A stretch of DNA of 64,000 nt from a methanogenic archaeon ISO4-H5 (lineage in GTDB: Archaea > Thermoplasmatota > Thermoplasmata > Methanomassiliicoccales > Methanomethylophilaceae), in contig CP014214.1 of the NCBI GenBank assembly GCA_001560915.1, positions 1,116,001 to 1,180,000 of the forward strand. The letters are read 5' to 3'. The notes below the pieces were generated by a model, which was not told the DNA's origin, ran no database searches, and was given only the letters and a program-made list of their open reading frames with translations. A program made the translations under genes and the position numbers. Below, piece by piece: positions 30,410 to 61,533 of this stretch (position 1 is the stretch's first letter; each line of letters begins with the position of its first letter).

Positions 30410-32905
30410 ATGCAGAATGGTGATGTGGATTCCGGTGAAGACCTTGTGCCCTTGAACCTTTGGGGCAAATAGGATGATATCTGCCACCTTCTTGAGTATC
30501 ACATGATTGATACTGCTTCTGTGTGCACGGCGTTTCTCAAAAATGATTCTAAAACGAGATTCGCGCTCGTAGACACCTTGGGCGTATCCGAAGATAAAAC
30601 GATCGTACTGATGGAGTTCCTATGCGCCATCCATGACATTGGAAAAGTAAACTCGAAATTCCAATCCCTGGAAGACAGTATGATTAGGTACCGTCACGAT
30701 ATCGGGGGATATCTTGTGCTGACTCGTCATCTGATGCAACGGATAGAGCCGTTGTTTACTACATCTCCCCCAATCGACCGTAAACTCAAATCAAATCTCC
30801 GTACACTCCTCAGGTGTGCGGCGATGCATCACGGCAGTCCGAAGGGGTGGAGCAATGAAGAATATGAGGAATCTTTCCCACTGATGTTCGATGAGCAATC
30901 ACTGTCTGCATCGGAAACGGTACTAAGTCATATCGTGAAACTCATGCATCTCGGGGAGGATGTATTCGCCCATATTCTCGAATCTGAAGGGTTCAAAGAA
31001 TTCTCTACCTTAGCTGCAGGCGTTATAACTCTCTGCGACTGGATTGCTTCTGGAGAATTCAATTACTGCTCCGAACCTATGCCGTTGGAACTGTACAGAT
31101 CACGTTCAATAGCCCATGCGAATTAGTTATTCGCAGAAGATTGCCTCCATATAGAGAAAAAACCTGCTATAAAACCCGAATTTGAAGAGGTGTTCGGATT
31201 CAGACCCACACCAATCCAGCACACCTTGGCGAATATCGCAGCAGATTCTGCAAAGATGATCATAGTAGAAGATGCCACGGGTGCGGGGAAGACTGAAGCG
31301 TCATTGATCTATGCCCTGAACTGCTTATCCGAGACGGAAACCACGGGTATCACTTTCGCATTGCCAACTCGTTCCACATCCAATCTTATGTTCCTCAGGA
31401 TGAATTCCTATGCAGACAGCATCCTTTCCGAAAACAACTCGGTGACTCTCCAACACGGTACATCCAAAACATTCCTTCAGACCGAAGGGCTTGAACCGGA
31501 ACACTCCTGGGTCTGCGGTAAAAACAAAGCTCTCTTTGCGAACATCTCCGTGTGCACTGTGGACCAGGCACTCAGTGCTGTAATTCCGACAAGGTACCAG
31601 CCGTTGAAGTTGATTTCTCTGCTCCGTCACGTGGTAATCATTGACGAAGTGCACGCTTATGACCCCTACATGTTCAGACTGCTGTGCAGTTTGGTCCAGT
31701 ATTGCAAGTTGTATTCTATACCTCTCGTACTGCTCTCTGCTACAATCCCCTCGCGGATGAGAAAAAAGCTGATAGAAGCATACGGTTCAGAACATACAGA
31801 ACTCCGTGGGGAATATCCTTTGATTACGGTATGCTCCGGTAAAGAAGTATCACAGATTCCATGCGAGTGCTCCACCAGATCCATCCGGGAAATCCAATTA
31901 CGCTATGTGTCGGACGAGAACCTTGTTAAGAAGGAGCTCACAGATTTAGCAAAACTGGGATATCGGGTATGTTGGATCCGTAACACCGTAGACGATGCTA
32001 TCGAAGCATTCGATAATATCCCCGATGGCGAGTACGAGAAACTTCTCGTACACTCCAGATTTACGGTGCAGGACAGGACCGACATAGAACATCATCTCAT
32101 TGACCTATGCGGAAAAAAGAGCAAACCGAAAGGCCTTATTGTAATCAGCACGCAAGTAGTAGAACAATCCCTCGACATTGAATTCGAGAGGGTATATTCA
32201 GACCTTGCACCGGTGGATTCCCTGATTCAACGCATGGGTCGTGACCAGCGCTTCTGTGATTCTCCAATCCCTTGTGAATTTGTGGTCCACGGACCGCCTC
32301 TGAACAAGGAAATTGATGAAAACTGGTATTCGGATTATTTCACCCGCGCTGGATATGTTTACACGGATCACTGCATGCTGTATAACACAGCCTTGCTGAT
32401 GTCCAGACCTAAAATATCCATTCCCGCAGATTACCGTGAATTCATCGAATTTGCTTATTCCGAACCTGATGAAAACAGCCCGTTCCTGGAGAATCATCGT
32501 AAATTCAGAGAATCCTGTTCAGCATCCGTTTCGAATTCTCAACGCGTGATTCTGGATCCTGATTTGGGGTACGGAAACTCGCTTTCCGAGGAGTTCACCG
32601 ATAATCAATGGGATGCCATCGAAAAGGCTACCACCCGTGAAACCGACGATCGTACTGTACAGTGTTTACTGATGGTTGAAGGTGAGAACGGCCCCGCACC
32701 GATCTCCGGTTCTTTGGAAACCAGCCTTATAACACTTAAAAAGAAATACGTCCCTTCGCCGGAAACGGATGATTGCCTTTATTACGGCAAATGGAAATTC
32801 ATCGGAAAACTGAAGTTAGACCTAGTTTCGGATGGCAAAGGAAACCAGTACTGGGTAGCTCCGGGAATCAGATACTCAAGGAGGAAAGGTGCAGAGTATG
32901 TTTAA
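30410..32905 (+). CDS. cas3: Type I-E Cas3 helicase-nuclease with two in-frame UAG codons (predicted Pyl)
   Basis: 831 codons if UAG is sense. TAG occurs in frame at codon 21 (30470-30472) and codon 239 (31124-31126); otherwise the frame is open. The N-terminus before the first TAG, VPLNLWGK, and the sequence after it, DDICHLLEYHMIDTASV, align together with Cas3 (WGK...IHLLIYHCLDVAAVA in E. coli), so the TAG is inside conserved sequence. HD nuclease: H31, H75-D76 in CAIHDIGK, then MHHG. Helicase: DATGAGKTEA (K294), DEVH box (412-415), LLSATIP, QRMGRDQR. The second TAG is in the helical linker between HD and helicase. Reading UAG as a stop would leave only fragments. Overlaps the cas8e start. 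Alternative: a decaying gene, but both breaks are TAG and no frameshift or other stop is present. Confidence 0.87.
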
Positions 32906-36724: not shown

Positions 36725-37380
36725 GCCATTACTTCAGCAGGATTGCCCTTACCCCCGAAGGGGTGGATTACAAAATCCGTATGATGAGCCACCACAGCTA
36801 CGATCTCCACAAGGAGATGTGGAACCTATTCCCGGGAGAACCGGATGCCGACCGTAGTTTCCTTTATTCGATAATGGATGATGGAAAAACCGTACTGATG
36901 GTATCTGAACGTGAACCGGTGTTCAACAACTATTGGAGCGTGGAATCCAAATCCTATGATCCTGTGATTTCCGAGGGAGACTCTTTCAGATTCCGTATTT
37001 GTGCCAATCCGACTGTCGCGAACAGCGTTAAAGGAAAACATCAGAGACATGATGTAGTCATGAACCTCAAACGCAAAATGCGTGAAGAGGGTGTGGAACT
37101 GTCCCAGAATGAAATCGTACAGAGAGCTGTAACCGAATGGATGGTTAGAAAAGCAGGGCTCAATGGATTCTCCGTTGACGAGAACAGCCTATTGATCCAC
37201 AGCTATGAGAAGAATGAAACTTTCAAACAGCAGAACGGAAAGAAAATCGTTTTCTCGACCGCTACAATCGAAGGGAGTCTCACAGTAAAAGACAAAGATA
37301 AATTCAGAAAAGCTCTGTTCTGCGGGATAGGTTCTGCTAAAGGATTCGGCTGCGGAATGCTCATGATCAGACGTATATGA
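36721..37380 (+). CDS. cas6e: crRNA endonuclease Cas6e (CasE)
   Basis: 219 residues. N-terminus HYFSRIALTPEG and SHHSYDLHKEMWNLFPG match Cas6e (histidine of the catalytic region followed by W-x-L/F-F). The C-terminal glycine-rich loop GIGSAKGFGCGMLMI matches the G-x-G-x-x-x-G-x-G-L/M end. It cuts the hairpin in each repeat. Overlaps the Cas1/Cas2 remnant by four bases. Confidence 0.94.
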   Translation: MSHYFSRIALTPEGVDYKIRMMSHHSYDLHKEMWNLFPGEPDADRSFLYSIMDDGKTVLMVSEREPVFNNYWSVESKSYDPVISEGDSFRFRICANPTVANSVKGKHQRHDVVMNLKRKMREEGVELSQNEIVQRAVTEWMVRKAGLNGFSVDENSLLIHSYEKNETFKQQNGKKIVFSTATIEGSLTVKDKDKFRKALFCGIGSAKGFGCGMLMIRRI

Positions 37381-37874
37381 GCTGGATTGAACCAGTAAAC
37401 ATTCCTCTAAAGGATCGAAGCAGTTACATCTACATCGAACATTGCATCATTGATGTCCGTAACAGCGCTTTCGTAATGCAGGATTTAGAAGGGAACACGT
37501 TCGGTGCACCGCTAGGTATACTGGCCGGCCTCATGTTGGGGCCTGGAACATCTGTTACACATGCTGCTGTAAAACTGGCTGCCGATGTGCATTGCCTTCT
37601 GCTCTGGGTTGGAGAGAACGGGGTCAGGATATATTCAGCTGGTATGCCTGGAGGTAACGGGTGCGACCGCCTGTTGATGCAGTCCAAACATGCTTCAAAA
37701 CCGCCTGCATTTATCTGGAAGATTGTAACGGAAAACATCGGCAAAGGTTCTGCGGTTCTGATCTGTTCTACAACAAAATCAGAATTCGGTTTCGAAATCG
37801 AGATTTGCGGGGAACCGCAACGGGTTTTGGATGAAATCGATGGAATAAAGGTACTTAAACATAGATTCGTTTGA
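37377..37874 (+). pseudogene. Cas1e-Cas2e deletion chimera (adaptation genes collapsed)
   Basis: 165 codons, open frame. Residues 1 to about 105 are the N-terminal domain of Cas1e: IPLKDRSSYIYIEH, LGPGTSVTHAAVKLAADV, LLLWVGENGVRIYSAG and PGGNGCDRLLMQSK. From about residue 112, FIWKIVTENIGKGSAVLICS, then TKSEFGFEIEICGEP and LDEIDGIKVLKHRFV are the C-terminal half of Cas2e. The Cas1 catalytic domain (the positions of E141, H208 and D221 in E. coli) and the first half of Cas2 are absent. A single in-frame deletion of several hundred bases with ends near 37689-37715 explains it. The product cannot integrate spacers. No other cas1 or cas2 lies in the window. Confidence 0.88.
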
Positions 37875-37887: not shown

Positions 37888-37894
37888 TTCAACA

Positions 37895-40057
37895 GAGTTC
37901 CCCATATGCGTGGGGATGAACCGGTTTTCCAAACGATGATCGATCTACTTACATTGAGTTCCCCATATGCGTGGGGATGAACCGAAACCCGTCTCAAAAG
38001 CCAAGAAACCCGTCAAGAATTCCCCACATGCGTGGGGATGAACCGAGAATGAGAACACCTTGTGATGCTGGATTCGTGAGTTCCCCACATGCATGGGGAT
38101 GAACCGATTGTGGAATACATCGACTCGTATATGCCCAAGAGTTCCCCACACATGTGGGGATGAACCGAACGTCCTGCACCTGCTCTACGAACTTCCTTCA
38201 AGTTCCCCACACATGTGGGGATGAACCATCTCTCTCCAAAACGAAACCGTCACAGCTCACGAGTTCCCCACATGCGTGGGGATGAACCGCTCTGAGGGAG
38301 TTAAAGTCTCCAGGGAGGCCGGAGTTCCCCACGCATATGGGGATGAACCGGAAGTGGGAATGTGAGCCGTAATTGGGTTGCTGAGTTCCCCACGCATGTG
38401 GGGATGAACCGAAGACCCAGGTGAGAGTACCGGGTGGACTCGTGAGTTCCCCACGTATGTGGGGATGAACCGCAGATCGCAGACTACGGTGACACCATCC
38501 AGTTAAGTTCCCCACTCATGTGGGGATGAACCGTCATGCGTCGCAGTGCTTACCATCTCATCATGGAGTTCCCCATGCATATGGGGATGAACCGAGAATC
38601 CCAAACCGAAGAAAACCGAAGTCAAAGAGTTCCCCACGCATGTGGGGATGAACCGAATGATGGCAGAGGAGAACGGACGTCCTATTTGAGTTCCCCACGC
38701 ATGTGGGGATGAACCGTAATACACGCCAAACATAAGAAGTCCGACACCATGTTCCCCACAAATATGGGGATGAACCGGCGTCCGAAGGAGAGGACCACAT
38801 CAGGGCCATGAGTTCCCCACGCATGTGGGGATGAACCGGAAAAATACGGGAAGAAATTTGCAATGCAAGTGAGTTCCCCACGCATGTGGGGATGAACCTA
38901 TCTGCATGAAGGTGCTGAACATCCGGCCCATGAGTTCCCCACGCATATGGGGATGAACCGCAGATCAGGCGCACCTTCATCAGCCCCGATGAGAGTTCCC
39001 CACGCATGTGGGGATGAACCGATTCGGCTTGTTCAGAAAGCGAATCCAAATATGAGTTCCCCACGCATATGGGGATGAATCGAAGACCGCAATCTACACC
39101 GCAGGCGCATATGTGAGTTCCCCACGCATGTGGGGATGAACCGGTCAAGGGCGAGGGCCTAAAATTCGCCTACCTGAGTTCCCCACGCATGTGGGGATGA
39201 ACCGCACGCCACCACCTCCGGAGACGCCTGGTCCGAGAGTTCCCCACGCATATGGGGATGAACCGGGAAAGTAAGGAGATCGTGAAAAGGTATCTGGGGG
39301 TTCCCCACGCATGTGGGGATGAACCGATGACGGAGATACTCTCCAGGAGAGGTACTCCGAGTTCCCCACGTAGGTGGGGATGAACCGTAGCCGTTGAACC
39401 ATGTGATGGTGTTGCAGGCGAGTTCCCCACGTAGGTGGGGATGAACCGGGAATTGAAAACGTAAGGCAGGGTTACGGATCGGGTTCCCCACGTAGGTGGG
39501 GATGAACCGGTCTTGTACTGTCCCTCGAACGGTTCGATGTGAAGTTCCCCACGCATGTGGGGAGGAACCGATATTGATTCCGAGCTTGCTGTATGCGGTG
39601 CCAAGTTCCCCACGTATATGGGGATGAACCGACTGGTGTCAGGGTACAGACCTCTCACGCAACGGGTTCCCCACGTAGGTGGGGATGAACCGCACAGACT
39701 GTGAAAGCCATCATCCGTGAGCGCGAGTTCCCCACATGCGTGGGGATGAACCGGCCGCTAGCCAGCACCCTCCCCAGACCGCTTAGAGTTCCCCACTCCT
39801 GTGGGGATGAACCGTCGTGTGTGGCAGTAGAAACCATTTCGTCATGGTGTTCCCCACACAGGTGGGGATGAACCTTAATGGCCGAAACCCCAATGTCCGG
39901 TACGCGGGAGTTCCCCACGTATGTGAGAATGAATCGCCTCGCAGCACCCCCTATAACAGGGGGCCATGGGTTCCCCACGTATGTGGAGATGGGTCGAACC
40001 CGAGTCCACGCTTACACTGAGCAAGGATGAGTTCCCCACTCATATAGGGGCACAATG
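37895..40057 (+). CRISPR. Type I-E CRISPR array, 36 repeats and 35 spacers
   Basis: 29-base repeats (GAGTTCCCCA-N6-TGGGGATGAACCG) alternate with 32-base spacers at a strict 61-base period; only spacer 34 is 31 bases. The stem CCCCA/TGGGG and the 5' handle ATGAACCG match the I-E crRNA orientation, so transcription is on the plus strand. The last three repeats (39908, 39968, 40029) are degenerate, placing the old end on the right and the leader end next to the cas genes. The six bases between the stem arms vary strongly among repeats. Spacers 11 (38534-38565) and 32 (39815-39846) derive from the same protein-coding site. Many apparent ORFs across the array are artefacts of the repeat. Confidence 0.98.
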
Positions 40058-52160: not shown

Positions 52161-52778
52161 TCACATTCCAAACTTGGCCTTGACATCGCTGTCAAGGAGG
52201 CCCATGAACATGAAGACTCCGATGATCATCATGCAGATTCCGATGGGGATGGTGATGATACCGAAGAGGGCGATGACACCACCGATGATGGTGAGGAGGA
52301 ACAGGATGAGGAGGATGATCCAAACGATCTTGTCCACGACAGAGTCCTTTCCGTCGGTGATCTTCTTGTAGAGGAAGAATGCGATAACACCGATGATAAT
52401 GTCGATTACTCCGTTTGCGAGGAGAGCGTTGTTGAAGAAGCCGCCGATGATCTCGAAGACTCCGCCAACGATGCGCACCATTGCGAAGACCTTGACGAAC
52501 TCGCAGATGATGTCGAATTTGTCGTTGAGTGCTCCGCCGCTTACGCCGAGTTTGTCACTGATTACGTTAGATCCGGTCTGACCCCTGACCCTCTGTGCGA
52601 AGGCAAGGTAGAGGAATCCTCCGATGAAGGTTCCCACTGCTACGATGATGTTGGCGACCTGAATGTCGCTTCCATCGACAACCTCCCAGATCATGGTGAC
52701 GATGGCCATCACGATGGAGACAATGGCAAGGATGAGCAGTGCGAGACCGGCATGGTCCTGGTTATCAAAGAATGCCAT
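52161..52778 (-). CDS. Multi-pass membrane protein, tandem paralogue 1
   Basis: 205 residues from the ATG at 52778; longer frames run into the intergenic region. About six hydrophobic segments. Starts MAFFDNQDHAGLALLILAIV and contains KITDGKDSVVDKIVWIILLI, matching the neighbour's KINDGQESLGDKIIWIVLVV. The repeated xGKDSxxDKIxWI motif and the end (VKAKFGM / VRDQFGI) show that the two genes are tandem duplicates. Function unknown. Confidence 0.8.
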   Translation of the reverse strand: MAFFDNQDHAGLALLILAIVSIVMAIVTMIWEVVDGSDIQVANIIVAVGTFIGGFLYLAFAQRVRGQTGSNVISDKLGVSGGALNDKFDIICEFVKVFAMVRIVGGVFEIIGGFFNNALLANGVIDIIIGVIAFFLYKKITDGKDSVVDKIVWIILLILFLLTIIGGVIALFGIITIPIGICMMIIGVFMFMGLLDSDVKAKFGM

Positions 52779-52895
52779 GCCCACTTGATGTAAAAATCTG
52801 CTATTAATACATTTTTCAGAATTTGTAAAAAAAATCAATATGCGTTGATACACAGAAGGTGTCCAACGAAAAAAAAACGAGAAAGAAAAGTGATT

Positions 52896-52911
52896 CTCCC
52901 CCGAAGGGGAG
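52896..52911 (-). terminator. UUCG-tetraloop terminator hairpin (second copy)
   Basis: On the minus strand CTCCCC-TTCG-GGGGAG, followed by a T-rich tract (plus-strand A-run at 52869-52877). It ends the gene at 52927 and duplicates the hairpin at 52115, so the terminator was copied with the gene. Confidence 0.68.
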
Positions 52912-52926
52912 AAAGGAAGTTTTAGC

Positions 52927-53532
52927 TCAGATTCCGAACTGGTCGCGGACGTTGATGACGTAGACCAGGAGGAGGAGGTAGAGGATACCCTCGATGATGG
53001 ATGCAATAGCTGCGATGATTGCAGATCCGAGGATTCCGATTCCGCCGATGACTCCACCGATGAATCCGAGGAGGAAGATGACGACGAGGACGATCCAGAT
53101 GATCTTGTCGCCGAGGGACTCCTGTCCATCGTTGATCTTCTTGTTGGCCCAGGTAAGGATCAGGAAGATGAGGATACCGACGATGACCTCGACTGCTCCG
53201 TTTGCCCACTCAGTGGCAATGAAGTAACCGATTCCGCCGATGATACCAGAAACAAGGCTGGCGTATGCAACAGCTGCGATGAAGGAGCTGATGACCTGGA
53301 ACTTGGAGTAGGATCCACCTTTGATGTCCTTTCCGAGCTTGAAGTAAACGATAGCTGCGATAAGAGCACCGACTCCGATGATTGCGTATCCGATCTTAGT
53401 GTTGGTTTCCCAATCTTTTGCGTAGTCCATCACGAAGGGACCGATGATGGAGAGGATTCCGGCGATAATCATGATGATTCCGCCGATCCAGAGCAGGAGA
53501 CCTGCGTTTTTGGTGTCGTCAAAGAATGACAT
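52927..53532 (-). CDS. Multi-pass membrane protein, tandem paralogue 2
   Basis: 201 residues, about six hydrophobic segments. Begins MSFFDDTKNAGLLLWIGGII; paralogous to the gene at 52161 over its whole length. It has its own promoter: the upstream region has a TATA-like TATATA on the minus strand (53554-53560). Function unknown. Confidence 0.8.
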   Translation of the reverse strand: MSFFDDTKNAGLLLWIGGIIMIIAGILSIIGPFVMDYAKDWETNTKIGYAIIGVGALIAAIVYFKLGKDIKGGSYSKFQVISSFIAAVAYASLVSGIIGGIGYFIATEWANGAVEVIVGILIFLILTWANKKINDGQESLGDKIIWIVLVVIFLLGFIGGVIGGIGILGSAIIAAIASIIEGILYLLLLVYVINVRDQFGI

Positions 53533-53840: not shown

Positions 53841-53970
53841 GATATTTTCCTCGACCGTGAGTGTTCTTATCCCTATATACGGGTTTTTGAAATTGTTAAC
53901 CCAATTTCTGTCACCGAAGAAGAACCTAAATGGTAGTATTCCATAGTGTCAATGTTTCGGAGGGGACATA

Positions 53971-56031
53971 TTGGAAAAAGAACGCGCGGCCAGATTCGAT
54001 TCCGTATTCGTCCCTTCGTCCAATTTCCCAGAACAGTCGGCCAGGGTGGCTGAGGGTACCGCTTCCGATCCATATTACCTGCCTTCCCGGTACAGGAATC
54101 CCGATTTCTCGGTCCTCACCGAAGGCCAGATCGCATTCTACAGATTCTGGAAGGAGTCGTTCTTCGAGGCCAATCATATACGGGCGGATGTCGGCTATGT
54201 CAACCTGTTGGCGTCGGAATTTCTGTGCTCCGACCTGTCCCCGATCAAGCTCAAACAGCAACTGCTGGCACTGTATGATTTCTGCTCCGAAGACCCTCTC
54301 GGAAAGAAGGATGTATCCGCAGCTGTATTCGACCTCTGCGTCTCCGAAGACCTCACACTCCCGATCATCGACTACTGCGGGAATCCCGGTATGAACGAGG
54401 TCGCCGCCGCAGAAGCTTTCTCTTCCCCTCCGTCCTATGTGTCAGCAGCATTCATAAGAATATTCAGCCCCGATTTCGCTGCAGACCTCACCGGAGCATT
54501 CAATTCCGCCATACACGACCTCGACCAGCTGCTCATATCCGAAGAAGGCATAGGATTCGCAGAGGTCTACGGCAGCGGCATCCGCACATTCAGACGCCGC
54601 CTTTTCGCAGATAGACCCTTCATGAACGGCAGGACCGTCGTGATAGAGGTGCCCGCATTGGATATCGGGGGCCGTTTCGGCGATGCTGTGCGTGCTGTGT
54701 GCGATCTGGTCGCAGATAAGAAACCCAAAGATGGAGTGCTTCCCGCATACTTCGTTCCAAGCGGAGAGCCCGCTGAGCCGGAATTCAGAAGTTCGCATGT
54801 TTACAGGGTCAGAGAATCCCCCTACGGAAGGATGCGTATGTTCTTCGGCAGCGAACCCATCCCCAACGGATTCCGCAAGGAGATGGAGAAACACTGGGAG
54901 GAATACAGCAACAAACCCTGCAAATACATACCGTCCGGGACTTCGAGGGCACTCTATTCCGAGATGGATGCCTCGCAGTATGCCTACTTCCGCTACTGGA
55001 AGAACGAGGTCCGCGAGGGCAGGTACCCAGAAACCGATAACGGCTATGTGTGGTTATTCGCCAACGAACAGATCTCCGATTTCCGCAACAGGCAGGAGGT
55101 CTATCGCCGTCTGTGCGGAATGTGCCAGGCATACGAATCCACCGAACACGGACTGCTCCACAGACTGTGCTTCGAATATGCCGTTCTGTTCAATCTGCCG
55201 GTCAGATTCGCAACTACTACACATGACGAAAGCGCTGCTGCCGTTCTGATGGAAGCGGTGAGGGGCGGTTCCGCAGAGGTTCTCCCCTACTGTTTCATCA
55301 CAGCTGCCGATGCTCCCGTCCCCTGGGCGAGGGCCTTCGACGACAGATGCTGCAGGATTGCGTGCGAAGCTCTCAAAGAGATTTCCCGCAGACTCAAGAC
55401 TGCAGGTTTCTCATTGGAGGGTATCGGAGGTCTGAAGACCTCTCCTCGCAAGATCGGCATATTCGGCGGTACCGGGATCGGACACTCGTTGGGCCCCTTT
55501 GCATGGGCGGACCTCCCTGTTATCGAATCGGACGGACGTTTCGAAGAACTTCTCAGATTCCTGATCTCCGAGACCTCCGAACGCGTCCACAGGAAGAAGG
55601 GTAACGACAGGAACAAAGGAGGATTCATCCTCGAGGGAATCGACTGCGGAAAGATTGTGGAGGAATGCATCTCCCGCAGGAGGTCCTCCGGTACGGTGAG
55701 ATCCTACGAAAGATTGGACCTTGATGCGATTGCCAAAGCAGAGAACGATCTTGAGGAAGTCACCCGCATAATGTCCACTGAGGAGGAAACCGAAAAGGAG
55801 ACCCCTGCCGAGACCGCCCCGGGATCAGCGGAGGGATGGTTCGGATTCTTCTCCTCCCTCACCGAAGAAGAGGGCAACTATCTCCGCTCGGCATTGAAAG
55901 GAAGGCCCGGACACGACGGTTCCGTCGAGGACTCGATTAACGGCAAGGCACTCGATGCCATCGGCGATACTGTCATCGAGGGCGGGGAGATAGTGGAAGA
56001 CTACCGTTCAGACCTGGAGGAGGGACTGTGA
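53971..56031 (+). CDS. TerB-N/TerB-C-type protein 1 of putative DNA-processing operon
   Basis: 686 residues from a TTG start, chosen because GGAGGGG lies five bases before it. Two TerB-N-like modules: LTEGQIAFYRFWKESFF with DVGYVNLLASEFL (about 49-85) and DASQYAYFRYWKNEVREGRY with NGYVWLFANEQI (about 330-370). A C-terminal TerB-C-like part (about 580-686) has LDLDAIAKAENDLEEVT and LTEEEGNYLRSALKG, ending INGKALDAIGDTVIEGGEIVEDY. Central TerB domain absent. First gene of a four-gene operon with four-base overlaps. TerB-N/C proteins are known next to helicases and ATPases in predicted stress or defence systems. Confidence 0.75.
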   Translation: MEKERAARFDSVFVPSSNFPEQSARVAEGTASDPYYLPSRYRNPDFSVLTEGQIAFYRFWKESFFEANHIRADVGYVNLLASEFLCSDLSPIKLKQQLLALYDFCSEDPLGKKDVSAAVFDLCVSEDLTLPIIDYCGNPGMNEVAAAEAFSSPPSYVSAAFIRIFSPDFAADLTGAFNSAIHDLDQLLISEEGIGFAEVYGSGIRTFRRRLFADRPFMNGRTVVIEVPALDIGGRFGDAVRAVCDLVADKKPKDGVLPAYFVPSGEPAEPEFRSSHVYRVRESPYGRMRMFFGSEPIPNGFRKEMEKHWEEYSNKPCKYIPSGTSRALYSEMDASQYAYFRYWKNEVREGRYPETDNGYVWLFANEQISDFRNRQEVYRRLCGMCQAYESTEHGLLHRLCFEYAVLFNLPVRFATTTHDESAAAVLMEAVRGGSAEVLPYCFITAADAPVPWARAFDDRCCRIACEALKEISRRLKTAGFSLEGIGGLKTSPRKIGIFGGTGIGHSLGPFAWADLPVIESDGRFEELLRFLISETSERVHRKKGNDRNKGGFILEGIDCGKIVEECISRRRSSGTVRSYERLDLDAIAKAENDLEEVTRIMSTEEETEKETPAETAPGSAEGWFGFFSSLTEEEGNYLRSALKGRPGHDGSVEDSINGKALDAIGDTVIEGGEIVEDYRSDLEEGL

Positions 56032-58118
56032 GCGACAGATTCTCGGAGCAGAGGTCGAAACTCACCGACGAACTGCCCCGCTATGCAGGACAGACCGCTC
56101 CCGAATGCAAAGCGGTAGGCATAACCCTCAGATACCCCGTGTACACGGATCTGACCGCGGACCAGCTCGAATATTACCTGTATTGGAGGAGCACCCTCGG
56201 CACCCCCGATTTCAAGAGAGCCGCCGAAGGTTACACCTGGTTGCTGGTCAGCGAACTCCTCAACACCGAACCGGGTAAGGTAGCAATACTCTGCTCCCAG
56301 ACCGGAAGGGACGGCTCCCCACTGTATCAGAACCTGTTGGGTACCGCCGTCGAATGCGCCATGGCCTTCGGCACCGACCTTCCCTCCTTCGTTCTGTGGA
56401 TGGCCTATGTAAAGGAATGCGATTTCCTCTCGAGGGCGTTCTGCCATCCAGTCTCCGACATCCCTCCCGATGCACTGACCGACTATGTCCCGGATGTCAT
56501 GCTGAGGATAAAGGACAGGATCGCCTTCGCACGTTTCGCGGGAACGGTATTGCGGGAATACGATGAAATTCTGATCAAGAAGACCGGGCGCAACCTCAGG
56601 CAGACATACCTCAGACCCAAGAAGCAATCCCTGCTTCCGTTCGCCCAATACGCCCATCTCGGAAAGAAGACCCCTGTGGAGAAGATAGTGTGGTCGCCCT
56701 TCGATGATTCCGTGAAGGATCTTGCCAATCTCCTCTGCGACGTGTTCTCCGGCAGGCCTGTCCCCAGGACCACCGTGCTTCCTCTGAAGGAGCAGCTCCT
56801 GTCCGTTGCCGAACGCGTCAAGGAATCGAAAGAGTACACCGATGGTGTAGATCCGTTCTCCAAACCGGAAGGCATCAGATATCGCAGATTCGGAAGTGCC
56901 AGCACCTCATTGGGACCCTCGTGTCTCCGCGACCCGAATGCCGGCACGTCCAAGACCCGCTGCACCATGGGAGATATCCTTACTTTCTCCGCCATGCCCC
57001 ATAAAGGTCCGGTCGGTTTCGTCACCTCGGACCTTGAGCATCCCTCTTACAACGACCTCTCCCGGGATCAGTTCGCTTACTATCTCTATTGGAGGGACAT
57101 GTTCAGGGAGGGCAGATGCCTTGACACCGACACCGGGTACGTGAACCTGTATCTCACCGAGCTCATCAACACCGACAAGGGAGAAGCCACCTCCGGGATC
57201 ATCCGCAGACTCCTCGATGCCTACGGCGATTGCGAAGGAAGTCTGATAGGCACCACGCTGATGGACCACGCCCTCTGCAACGGACAGCCGTTCACGGACT
57301 ACCGTGTCTGCATGGATCGTTATGTAGTGAACGCGTGGGCGGAGACCTTCATAAAGGGTACCAACACCGTTCCCCTCGACGATACCCTGTTCAGCATGAT
57401 GAGGTCCGGTTCCATAGGCGTGAGGTACATCGGGAGATCCGCCCTCACCGAACCCATCGGGCGCGCACTGCAAAGGATACTCACCCAATTATCCTCTACT
57501 CGGGATCCTGCCCAGACCTTCGGTGCCGAACGCGTCACCGTGAAGAGGGGACTCTACTTCGGATTCGATTACCTCAGGGGAAGCCCCGAATGCAAGATAT
57601 CGTACAGCAATTTCATCGGCAACAGGAAGTTCACCCGTTTTGTGGACAAGGTCTTCCAGTATGCTGTTTCACTGCAGGGGCGCAGCGATGATACCAAGAG
57701 ACCGCCCTTCACTTTCGCGGGCATCAACTGCGCCCAGATAATCGCGGAGGAGCTGTCCTCTTGGAAAGCTACCGCCGAGAAGACGGAGATCAGACTGGAC
57801 TCCGAGGCCATCGAGGATGCGGAATCCGATCTCAGGGCTGTTACCGACCTGATGAAGGTGTCCTTGGACGGCGAAGATGCCGAGGAACCCGTGCAGACCG
57901 TATCTGCCGGGACTGACGACCCGTGGGAGGCATTCGCCGCCTCTCTGACGGATGAAGAGAAGGAATACGTCAGGAAGGTCCTGGAAGGGGAGACGTCCGC
58001 CCGTCCCGGGATCGAGGATGCGGTCAACGGCAAGGCCCTGACGCACGTGGGCGATACGGTTTTAGAGGATGGAAGACCTGTTGAGGATTATTTGGATGAG
58101 CTCAGAAGGATGATGTGA
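56028..58118 (+). CDS. TerB-N/TerB-C-type protein 2 (paralogue)
   Basis: 696 residues from a GTG overlapping the upstream stop. Same architecture as its neighbour: DLTADQLEYYLYWRSTLG (about 40) and DLSRDQFAYYLYWRDMFREG with TGYVNLYLTELIN (about 342-375), then a TerB-C end (about 590-696) with LTDEEKEYVRKVLEG and VNGKALTHVGDTVLEDGRPVEDY. The two proteins are diverged tandem duplicates, each with an internal duplication. They may form a heteromeric scaffold for the ATPase and helicase that follow. Confidence 0.75.
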   Translation: MSDRFSEQRSKLTDELPRYAGQTAPECKAVGITLRYPVYTDLTADQLEYYLYWRSTLGTPDFKRAAEGYTWLLVSELLNTEPGKVAILCSQTGRDGSPLYQNLLGTAVECAMAFGTDLPSFVLWMAYVKECDFLSRAFCHPVSDIPPDALTDYVPDVMLRIKDRIAFARFAGTVLREYDEILIKKTGRNLRQTYLRPKKQSLLPFAQYAHLGKKTPVEKIVWSPFDDSVKDLANLLCDVFSGRPVPRTTVLPLKEQLLSVAERVKESKEYTDGVDPFSKPEGIRYRRFGSASTSLGPSCLRDPNAGTSKTRCTMGDILTFSAMPHKGPVGFVTSDLEHPSYNDLSRDQFAYYLYWRDMFREGRCLDTDTGYVNLYLTELINTDKGEATSGIIRRLLDAYGDCEGSLIGTTLMDHALCNGQPFTDYRVCMDRYVVNAWAETFIKGTNTVPLDDTLFSMMRSGSIGVRYIGRSALTEPIGRALQRILTQLSSTRDPAQTFGAERVTVKRGLYFGFDYLRGSPECKISYSNFIGNRKFTRFVDKVFQYAVSLQGRSDDTKRPPFTFAGINCAQIIAEELSSWKATAEKTEIRLDSEAIEDAESDLRAVTDLMKVSLDGEDAEEPVQTVSAGTDDPWEAFAASLTDEEKEYVRKVLEGETSARPGIEDAVNGKALTHVGDTVLEDGRPVEDYLDELRRMM

Positions 58119-59398
58119 TGGTTGCAAACGTACCCAAGAGGACATTGAACACGCTTATGAACGCGATTTCCTCCGGAGTTGTCCCCCGCAGAGGATTGGA
58201 GTACATCGCGGTCGGAAGGAAGAAGGAGACTCAGACCTTCGTCAACGATCTGGAGGAAACAGCCGAGGGAGGGGGTGCGTTCCGCTTCATCTCCGGCCGT
58301 TTCGGTAACGGTAAGAGTTTCATGACCCAGATGGTCAGGAACTATGCCATGGACAAGGGTTTCGTGGTGATGGATGCCGACCTCGCCATCAACCGCAGGA
58401 TCACCGGTTCCAAGGGAGAGGGTGTGAACACCTACCGCGAACTGGTGAAGAACACCGCCTACCGCACCCGTCCCGAGGGAGGTGCCATCGAGCCCATCCT
58501 GCAGGAGTGGTCCGAAAAGCTCTGCGAGGAGCTCGGCGGAAGGGATGCCGCCGATTTGGAAGCAATCAGGCACATCGTGAGGAAGAAGACCTCGGGCATG
58601 TCGAGCATGCAGTACTACCGGGACTTCGCGGCCGTCCTCTCACAGTACGTGTACGGATACCTCACCGATCAGGAGGACGATCCCTCCATCAGATGGCTCA
58701 AAGGCGAGTACGACCTCAAGAGCAACGTGAGGAAGGACCTGGGAGTAAGCACACTCATCGATGACTCCGATTGGTATGAAGTCATCAAACTATGGACGGA
58801 GCTCTTCGTCACTCTCGGTTACAAGGGACTTGTCGTCTTCCTCGACGAGGCTGTCGTTCTCTACAAACTCCAGAACAAGGTCTCCCGCTCCAACAACTAC
58901 GAGCGTCTCCTTACCATGTTCAACGACATCATGCAGGGGAAGTCCTCTCACTTATCAATATACGTCTGCGGAACCCCCGAGTTCATTCAGGACCCCAACA
59001 GGGGACTTTACAGTTACGAAGCTCTCAAATCCCGTCTGGTCTCCGGACGCTACGAGAACGGGTACGACAATTACCTCGGGCCCGTCATCAACCTCAGACC
59101 TCTTTCCAATGAGGAGATCTTCGTCCTGCTGAGGACAGTGAAAGGACTCCATGAGCAGAGATACGGATACACCTCGGAGATCGACGACAGGAAGCTGGAG
59201 ATCTACCTCAAGACTGTGCTCTCCAGCAGTGTTTCATCTTCCATGCTCACTCCCAGGGAGATCACCAGGGACCTCATCAGCCTCCTGGATACCCTGCACC
59301 AGAATCCCCAGGCGACCTTCGAACAGTTAGTGCAGGGGAGGAAGGTGGCGAACGACCGCAATCCAGACGAGGATATCATCGAGGACCTCGACGTATGA
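58118..59398 (+). CDS. BrxD-like ATP-binding protein (DUF2791)
   Basis: 427 residues. Begins with RTLNTLMNAISSGVVPRRGLEYIAVGR, the conserved start of DUF2791/BrxD proteins (arginine-rich approach, then the P-loop). Walker A ISGRFGNGKSFM (K66); Walker B GLVVFLDEAVVLYK near residue 245; sensor-like IYVCGTPEF. BrxD with the helicase BrxHI occurs in type 2 BREX loci. Here the partners are TerB-type proteins and no pglX, pglZ or brxC is present. ATGA overlap with the helicase gene. Confidence 0.82.
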   Translation: MVANVPKRTLNTLMNAISSGVVPRRGLEYIAVGRKKETQTFVNDLEETAEGGGAFRFISGRFGNGKSFMTQMVRNYAMDKGFVVMDADLAINRRITGSKGEGVNTYRELVKNTAYRTRPEGGAIEPILQEWSEKLCEELGGRDAADLEAIRHIVRKKTSGMSSMQYYRDFAAVLSQYVYGYLTDQEDDPSIRWLKGEYDLKSNVRKDLGVSTLIDDSDWYEVIKLWTELFVTLGYKGLVVFLDEAVVLYKLQNKVSRSNNYERLLTMFNDIMQGKSSHLSIYVCGTPEFIQDPNRGLYSYEALKSRLVSGRYENGYDNYLGPVINLRPLSNEEIFVLLRTVKGLHEQRYGYTSEIDDRKLEIYLKTVLSSSVSSSMLTPREITRDLISLLDTLHQNPQATFEQLVQGRKVANDRNPDEDIIEDLDV

Positions 59399-61533
59399 GC
59401 GACCTTTTCGCCGACCTGCCCTGGTTCCTCAAGGAATACGTTCACAGCAACAGGTGGAGTTCCTTCAGGAGCATACAGACCGAGACCTATGAACTCATCA
59501 GGAACAGGGATTCCCATATCCTGATATCGGCGGGTACATCCTCGGGAAAGACGGAAGCTGCGCTATTCCCTGTCATTTCCTCTCTCTACACGGATCCTCC
59601 CGCAGGGATAGGTGCATTGTACATCGGTCCCCTCAAGGCCCTCATCGACGACCAGTTCGAAAGGGCCGACTATCTCCTGAGGGATTCCGGCATCAGGGTG
59701 ACGGGATGGCACGGGGATGTGAGTCAGAGTGCCAAGAAGAAGCTGTTCGCCGATCCCTCGGGGATACTGCAGATCACTCCCGAGTCACTGCAGAACATCA
59801 TCTCGAACCATCCGGATCAACTGGTCCCAATGTTCGCCTCGCTGAGGTTCGTAATCATAGATGAAGTACATGCATTCATGAGCTCCGACAGAGGGTTACA
59901 ATTGCTGTGCTGCCTGGAGACCATCGAGCGCATAACCAAATGCAAACCGAGACGTCTGGGTCTTTCGGCTACGGTTTCTGATCCAGCGCCTTTCTGCGAG
60001 TGGCTCTCCGCATCCACTGGTGTACCTACGGAACCGGTGACCGACGGAAGCATCGGGGACCGCGAACTCGAAATCAGGTACAACCTGTTCCCCACCCCAC
60101 AGGAGGAACAGGGCATCCCCCGCAAGAAGGCCGTCACCGCCTACTACAGGAGACTCTACTCCGACATCAAGGGAAGGAACTGCATCGTGTTCACCAATAG
60201 CAGGGATTCCGCCGAGAAGACCTCGCATTCACTCATGAAGATGGCCGAGCTCAACAACCGCCCCGGTACCGTGTTCATCCACCATGGGAGCGTGTCCCGC
60301 GAACTGAGGGCGGAGGCGGAGAAAGCGCTCAAATCCGACAGCGGGAAGAAATCGGTGGTCGCCACGGTCACCCTCGAACTCGGTATCGACGTGGGGAACC
60401 TGGACCGTATCATACAGGTCGGTGCTCCCTACACATGTTCGAGCATGGTGCAGAGGATGGGCCGTTCGGGACGCAGGGGAGGGTCGCAGAACATGGTCAT
60501 CTACTGCAACGACGACCTCTCACGCTATTGGGCCGAGACAGACGGGATCTCCATGGATACGGTCAGATGCATCGCCATGGCCGAACTCGTGCTTAAGGAC
60601 CATTGGGTAGAAACCCCGTCAGTCCCCAGCCACCCTTACGGATTGTTATTCCATCAGACCCTGCAGTATCTCAAACCCGGATTGGGTGCGAAATTCGCCG
60701 AACTGGCCGAGAACGTCCTCTCCATGTATCCGTTCAGGAACATCAGCAGAGATGATTACAAGACCCTCATCAGGAGCATGGTATCGAGTACCTTCCTGGA
60801 ACGGATGGAAGACGGCACATACCTGATTGGTACCAAAGGAGAGAGAATGGCCTTCCACCGGGATTTCTGTTCCGTGTTCACGGTCGGTAAGGAATTCGAG
60901 ATCAAATTCGAAGGCAAATCCATAGGTTCCATACAGCAGATCCCCTCTCCGGGAGAGCTCATTCAGCTTGCCGGCAGGGTGTGGGAGGTCACCGAAGTCG
61001 ATATGAAAGACTACCACGCGGATGTCATAGAATCCGACGGAACCGTGAACACCCCCTGGACTTCCGGAATTCCGGGATTGGATACCCGCATCCTGAAGAA
61101 GATGAAGGAGGTCCTGGTGACGAACGACGACTATCCCTACATAGACCAATCCGCCAGGGATTGCCTCAGGCAGTGCCGTTCGGCAGGATATCTGCAGGGA
61201 GTGGGTTCCACCTTCGTGGACAGGTCCAACGGATACCGTATCTATCCCTGGCTGGGGAGCAGACAGTTCGACACTCTCAGGAGGATACTGCAGCAGGTAG
61301 ATGGTATCAAGGGCATGCGCAGCAGGCAGCCCTATTACATCGACGTTGCCACGGATCTGTCGGAATCCGAGATAAGGTCGGAGGTCAGGAACATCCTGCG
61401 CAGCCGCAGCGGTATCTCCCTGGTGGTGGAATCTGACGACCTCCGCATAGGGAAGTACGACGAATACGTCCCGGAGTCGCTGCTGATAAAGCAGTTCGTG
61501 GCTGACGAGATAGATACGGATTTCGACCTGTGA
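59395..61533 (+). CDS. BrxHI/Lhr-like superfamily 2 helicase
   Basis: 712 residues. Motif I SAGTSSGKTEAA (K52), Ia GPLKALIDDQ, II DEVH (156-159), III LGLSATVSD, IV-V region SVVATVTLELGIDVGNLD, and VI QRMGRSGRRGG. The core plus winged-helix C-terminal part resembles Lhr-core, and the length matches BrxHI. Last gene of the TerB/BrxD operon; stops exactly where the convergent gene ends. Confidence 0.87.
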   Translation: MSDLFADLPWFLKEYVHSNRWSSFRSIQTETYELIRNRDSHILISAGTSSGKTEAALFPVISSLYTDPPAGIGALYIGPLKALIDDQFERADYLLRDSGIRVTGWHGDVSQSAKKKLFADPSGILQITPESLQNIISNHPDQLVPMFASLRFVIIDEVHAFMSSDRGLQLLCCLETIERITKCKPRRLGLSATVSDPAPFCEWLSASTGVPTEPVTDGSIGDRELEIRYNLFPTPQEEQGIPRKKAVTAYYRRLYSDIKGRNCIVFTNSRDSAEKTSHSLMKMAELNNRPGTVFIHHGSVSRELRAEAEKALKSDSGKKSVVATVTLELGIDVGNLDRIIQVGAPYTCSSMVQRMGRSGRRGGSQNMVIYCNDDLSRYWAETDGISMDTVRCIAMAELVLKDHWVETPSVPSHPYGLLFHQTLQYLKPGLGAKFAELAENVLSMYPFRNISRDDYKTLIRSMVSSTFLERMEDGTYLIGTKGERMAFHRDFCSVFTVGKEFEIKFEGKSIGSIQQIPSPGELIQLAGRVWEVTEVDMKDYHADVIESDGTVNTPWTSGIPGLDTRILKKMKEVLVTNDDYPYIDQSARDCLRQCRSAGYLQGVGSTFVDRSNGYRIYPWLGSRQFDTLRRILQQVDGIKGMRSRQPYYIDVATDLSESEIRSEVRNILRSRSGISLVVESDDLRIGKYDEYVPESLLIKQFVADEIDTDFDL

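What the first reader, a model, noticed from the sequence alone, without database searches (positions are those of the whole stretch)
53971..61533. Four-gene TerB-N/C x2 + BrxD + BrxHI operon, a candidate defence or DNA-processing system
The genes overlap by four bases or one base throughout, so they are made together. BrxD-like ATPase and BrxHI-like helicase are BREX type 2 components, but no methyltransferase, PglZ or BrxC homologue is present. Instead two large TerB-N/TerB-C-type proteins are joined to them. TerB-associated helicase/ATPase sets have been predicted from genome context as stress or DNA-processing systems, but I know of no archaeal example with this exact make-up.
Basis: partly seen in the sequence, partly recalled or inferred. 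Interest (0 to 1): 0.85.

Follow-up and report, generated by a model that had tools for sequence, protein, structure and literature searches.

The report
Archaeal Shango with two sensor genes
A gut methane-making archaeon carries a version of Shango, a known bacterial anti-virus gene set, with two copies of its most variable gene; related archaea often keep the conserved motor genes while that variable gene changes far faster, which suggests it is the part that recognises or triggers on invaders.

Summary
The four-gene operon is real (53971-61533, +). It is not a new BREX-like system. It is Shango (SngA-SngB-SngC), with SngA present twice: A-A-B-C. All three PADLOC Shango models match (SngA 1e-27 and 5e-41, SngB 1e-148, SngC 3e-194) and beat BrxD and BrxHI. 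The locus belongs to an archaea-only Shango branch found in three Methanomethylophilaceae genera: 42 of 147 genomes in the order have some SngB, and one genus has it in 31 of 31.

Three things go beyond the textbook system. (1) These SngA proteins carry a duplicated TerB_N-type module and no detectable TerB domain. (2) Six loci have two SngA genes, from at least two separate additions. (3) Evolution is steeply graded: between species of one genus, SngB differs by 0.39 substitutions/site, SngC 0.70, SngA 2.2 (neighbouring HtpG 0.29). Bacterial Shango shows the same order.

Best reading: SngB-SngC is a conserved ATPase-helicase engine, and SngA the fast-changing recognition or trigger subunit, stacked twice here. 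That role is inferred, not shown; dN/dS gives no sign of positive selection. New variant of a known kind.

The parts
53959..53965 (+). Shine-Dalgarno-like GGAGGGG before the operon
   Evidence: read in sequence
53971..56031 (+). sngA1 (distal SngA, 686 aa): TerB_N-type module x2 + TerB_C
   Evidence: PADLOC SngA 1.2e-27; TerB_N 2e-4, TerB_C 2e-4; profile hit 617 bits; AlphaFold model pLDDT 82, pTM 0.48
56028..58118 (+). sngA2 (SngA next to sngB, 696 aa)
   Evidence: PADLOC SngA 5.3e-41; TerB_N 1e-14; AlphaFold model pLDDT 87.5, pTM 0.74
56085..56927 (+). TerB_N-type module 1 of SngA2 (residues 20-300)
   Evidence: hhalign with module 2: E 4e-46 over 252 columns
57000..57797 (+). TerB_N-type module 2 of SngA2 (residues 325-590)
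57795..58112 (+). TerB_C region of SngA2, the most conserved part of SngA (N667, D676, Y688 invariant)
58115..59398 (+). sngB, BrxC/BrxD-family ATPase, 427 aa (or from ATG 58118)
   Evidence: PADLOC SngB 1.3e-148; BrxD only 7.5e-44; below NCBIfam BREX_BrxD cut-off, 149 vs 350 bits
58295..58318 (+). SngB Walker A GRFGNGKS
   Evidence: read in sequence
58829..58852 (+). SngB Walker B LVVFLDEA
   Evidence: read in sequence
59395..61533 (+). sngC, SF2 helicase of the BrxHI/Lhr type, 712 aa
   Evidence: PADLOC SngC 3.5e-194 (645 bits); BrxHI 413 bits
59533..59553 (+). SngC helicase motif I GTSSGKT
   Evidence: read in sequence
59860..59871 (+). SngC helicase motif II DEVH
   Evidence: read in sequence

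Best explanation
The operon is a lineage-specific archaeal form of the Shango anti-virus system, with gene order sngA1-sngA2-sngB-sngC. SngB (P-loop ATPase) and SngC (SF2 helicase) form the conserved engine that is loaded on, and remodels or unwinds, invading or abnormal DNA. The SngA proteins are the exchangeable recognition or trigger subunits. Their conserved TerB_C end (and TerB_N cores) would dock on SngB/SngC, while the rest of each TerB_N-type module changes quickly and meets the invader's DNA, protein or structure. Carrying two divergent SngA genes would give one engine two input specificities. Shown here: family identity, operon structure, intact ATPase and helicase motifs, SngA module duplication, the rate gradient, the near-fixed presence in one genus, and separate additions of a second SngA. 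Inferred: antiviral role in this host (from experiments on bacterial homologues), complex formation, SngA as specificity subunit, DNA as the substrate.
For: Family: PADLOC SngA/SngB/SngC all best hits, in the correct A-B-C order; bacterial Shango loci show the same order. Own clade: archaeal SngB is one clade (97/93), separate from bacterial SngB and from bacterial-type copies in the same archaeal genera. Presence: 42/147 genomes of the order, 3 of 30 genera; SngB and SngC-type helicase each 31/31 in genus g9; 3/6 in g12. Rate gradient, Kimura medians in g9: SngB 0.39, SngC 0.70, SngA 2.16, HtpG 0.29; bacteria: identity 59/45/31 and 88/70/53 % for B/C/A. SngA conservation sits in the TerB_N motifs and the C-terminus, column identity about 0.33-0.52 against 0.17-0.25 elsewhere. 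Module duplication: hhalign E 4e-46. Two-SngA loci: window, L041, L035, L039, L047, L048; the tree shows separate additions. Some loci lie beside defence genes: type I-E cas (L047, L057), a type IV restriction enzyme (L051), MADS/Lamassu-like proteins (L040, L034). Antiphage activity of bacterial Shango: PMC10250203.
Against: No antiviral test exists for an archaeal copy. SngA dN/dS is below 1 in every pair tested (0.05-0.46), so positive selection is not shown; relaxed constraint or simple replacement could give the same gradient. Many g9 loci lie among metabolic genes, not in defence islands. A universal presence in one genus is unusual for a defence system. No nuclease domain was found, so how DNA would be destroyed is open.
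Confidence: 0.5

Rival explanations
1. Shango-family system, but SngA is the effector or the target of viral inhibitors, not the recogniser: it evolves fast to escape anti-Shango proteins, and the second copy is a backup or decoy.
For: The same rate gradient and copy number variation would follow.
Against: No catalytic motif seen in SngA; no Foldseek or PDB sequence match to any enzyme. Duplicated modules fit a binding role better (inference).
Confidence: 0.2
2. A domesticated, housekeeping DNA-processing or stress system in these methanogens that descends from Shango.
For: 31 of 31 genomes in genus g9 have it; often among metabolic genes such as htpG, aminotransferase and GHMP kinase; SngB evolves at nearly core-gene pace.
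Against: Absent from 27 of 30 genera in the order and from about half of the genomes of the two other genera. Alleles follow RpoB only weakly (Mantel rho 0.28 for SngB; L049/L036 RpoB 0.07 but SngA 2.3). SngA turnover is far above that of the neighbouring core genes measured. Some loci sit beside CRISPR or restriction genes.
Confidence: 0.2
3. A reduced BREX type 2 system or BREX relative.
For: SngB matches PF10923; SngC matches BrxHI at 5e-124.
Against: BrxD model scores 149 bits against a 350-bit cut-off, SngB 494; SngC 645 vs BrxHI 413 bits; no PglZ, PglX, BrxC; the TerB proteins are SngA.
Confidence: 0.03

Closest known systems
Shango (SngABC), E. coli and Pseudomonas aeruginosa PA14
   Same: Gene order A-B-C, SngB ATPase and SngC helicase of constant size, TerB_N and TerB_C in SngA, steep SngA divergence (PMC10250203)
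   Different: Two SngA genes; TerB_N-type module duplicated within each SngA; no detectable TerB (PF05099) domain; separate archaeal clade
BREX type 2 BrxD and BrxHI
   Same: Same ATPase and helicase superfamilies; SngC, BrxHI, DruE and DpdJ form one potential helicase clade (PMC12278908)
   Different: No PglX, PglZ or BrxC; scores far below BrxD cut-off and lower than SngC
Orphan SngA'-SngB' pair beside the mtmB/pyl cluster in five g9 genomes
   Same: SngB' is the sister clade of archaeal SngB (100/99); SngA' keeps TerB_C
   Different: No SngC beside it; SngA' only about 370-450 aa without a recognised TerB_N

Membership tests
Shango | SngB-type ATPase (PDLC03959) | tested here: met
   1.3e-148, 494 bits, full length; better than BrxD
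Shango | SngC-type SF2 helicase (PDLC03960) | tested here: met
   3.5e-194, 645 bits, full length; motifs I and II present
Shango | SngA protein (PDLC03958) directly upstream of sngB | tested here: met
   two copies, 1.2e-27 and 5.3e-41; order A-A-B-C
Shango | TerB (PF05099) domain inside SngA | tested here: not met
   no PF05099 hit in either SngA, while proteobacterial SngA has it; a profile of bacterial TerB does not align (1.9 %). Paenibacillus SngA, a full Shango by the three PADLOC models, also gives no PF05099 hit, so this feature does not define the family; I file by the three gene models and gene order
Shango | antiphage activity | not testable with these tools
   shown only for bacterial systems (PMC10250203)
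BREX type 2 | BrxD by NCBIfam NF033438 | tested here: not met
   148.6 bits against cut-off 350
BREX type 2 | PglX, PglZ, BrxC present in the locus | tested here: not met
   none among the four operon genes or the flanking genes scanned

The most novel reading that the evidence does not exclude
SngA is an interchangeable specificity subunit, so Shango is a modular immune engine (conserved ATPase-helicase plus swappable and stackable TerB_N-based recognisers), and these methanogens run two recognisers on one engine as a core immune system of the lineage.
Probability: 0.3. Interest if true: 0.75.

Novelty: new variant of a known kind. Interest (0 to 1): 0.5.

Why it matters
Shango's mechanism is listed as unknown (PMC12926258). 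The graded evolution of its three genes, seen in both archaea and bacteria, points to SngA as the part facing the invader and makes this directly testable by SngA swaps. It would also mark a TerB_N-type module, which finds no structural match in the PDB, as a recognition domain, and show that a genus of gut methanogens has a near-fixed non-CRISPR defence. That bears on any plan to use viruses against methane-producing archaea.

Tried and rejected
BREX membership: rejected on model scores. Foldseek of both SngA models against PDB, and of SngA2 against viral structures: no match with E <= 0.001. PDB sequence search for SngA and SngB: nothing. Positive selection on SngA: NG86 dN/dS below 1 in all pairs, synonymous sites near saturation in most. 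Strict vertical inheritance: only weak agreement with RpoB, and one core gene is a thin baseline. Empty site in relatives of the same genus: the flanking genes are too diverged to call it. SngB in sequenced phages: none. A protein family shared upstream of two Shango loci is only a P-type cation ATPase.

Full report
OBSERVATION. The four ORFs are present at the stated coordinates, on one strand, with 4-base overlaps; sngB may start one codon later with a 1-base overlap. A strong Shine-Dalgarno-like site precedes the TTG start. The next gene downstream is convergent and abuts SngC without a gap. The window lies in a complete 1,937,883-bp genome. The published genome of the ovine-rumen methanogen ISO4-H5 has 1,937,882 bp, and its reported CRISPR array position (1,153,894-1,155,995) falls where the window has its array. 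I therefore take the host to be ISO4-H5.

IDENTITY. The PADLOC models for Shango match all four proteins: SngA 1.2e-27 and 5.3e-41, SngB 1.3e-148, SngC 3.5e-194. BrxD reaches only 7.5e-44 and is far below NCBI's cut-off (148.6 vs 350 bits); BrxHI scores 413 bits against 645 for SngC. Shango is a three-gene antiphage system with TerB-like, ATPase and helicase proteins (PMC10250203). Bacterial loci show one SngA of variable size (505-1267 aa) followed by SngB (about 435 aa) and SngC (about 725 aa). The window has the same order with two SngA genes.

DISTRIBUTION. Of 147 genomes of the order, 42 have SngB, in 3 of 30 genera. In genus g9 all 31 genomes have SngB and an SngC-type helicase match; one of them (G084) has only the bacterial type, and in G088 the SngC gene is cut by a contig end, so its match is to a more distant helicase. 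Genus g12 has 3 of 6. In the host's own genus 8 of 14 genomes have SngB, two of which (G034, G039) carry the bacterial type. A sample of 293 genomes of the phylum gave matches only in genera g1 and g9. In the SngB tree the archaeal type is one clade (97/93). The bacterial-type copies in the same archaeal genera nest with Treponema and Clostridia, which fits recent transfer.

ANATOMY. SngB keeps Walker A (GRFGNGKS) and Walker B (LVVFLDEA); SngC keeps GTSSGKT and DEVH. Each full-length archaeal SngA carries two copies of an approximately 250-residue TerB_N-type module (hhalign E 4e-46 between the halves) followed by TerB_C. Genus g12 and L036 have one module. The TerB domain (PF05099) found in proteobacterial SngA is not detectable here. 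AlphaFold gives a confident fold for SngA2 (pLDDT 87.5, pTM 0.74) without a PDB or viral structural match.

EVOLUTION. Among g9 loci the median Kimura distances are SngB 0.39, SngC 0.70, SngA 2.16, with HtpG, a neighbouring core gene, at 0.29. Within the host genus, SngB identity of 79 % goes with SngC 70 % and SngA 43 % (medians). The same order appears in bacteria (59/45/31 %). SngA conservation is confined to the TerB_N motifs and the C-terminal region. Six loci have two SngA genes. In the SngA tree the members of a pair are not sisters in the window/L041 or in L035/L039/L048, but are close in L047, so a second SngA was added more than once. dN/dS is below 1 throughout, so an arms race is suggested, not demonstrated. 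Allele distances follow RpoB only weakly (rho 0.28, 0.51, 0.38 for B, C, A): the locus is kept but its alleles do not simply follow the species.

CONTEXT. The window holds a type I-E CRISPR-Cas locus about 14 kb upstream. In two g9 genomes Shango directly borders type I-E cas genes; others border a type IV restriction enzyme or MADS/Lamassu-like genes. Many others lie between metabolic genes. No statistical test of defence association was made.

CONCLUSION. It is a lineage-specific, double-SngA form of Shango. The most likely working is a conserved ATPase-helicase engine (SngB, SngC) with SngA as fast-changing trigger or recogniser. My own estimates: family identity about 0.95, antiviral function about 0.75, SngA as specificity subunit about 0.4-0.5.

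Noticed in passing
window 37377-37874: One ORF joins the N-terminal part of Cas1e (residues 9-109) to the C-terminal part of Cas2 (113-161): the CRISPR adaptation genes look fused by an internal deletion.
   Followed up: partly
window 37890-40050: CRISPR array with 61-nt period whose repeats differ strongly from one another, with some paired changes in the hairpin; fits a long-frozen array behind the broken cas1-cas2.
   Followed up: partly
window 30503-32905: cas3 appears as an HD ORF and a helicase ORF; the ISO4-H5 paper reports an in-frame amber (pyrrolysine) codon in this cas3.
   Followed up: no
L025-L029 (e.g. L028:377-2777): Five g9 genomes carry a second SngA'-SngB' pair without SngC beside it, at a fixed place next to the monomethylamine methyltransferase/pyrrolysine cluster; sister clade of archaeal SngB.
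   Followed up: partly
L022, L023, L024: Bacterial-type Shango in three related archaeal genomes, nested with Treponema ruminis and Clostridia: likely recent inter-domain transfer.
   Followed up: partly
window 52161-53532: Two paralogous small membrane proteins in tandem upstream, partly conserved beside Shango in the genus.
   Followed up: no
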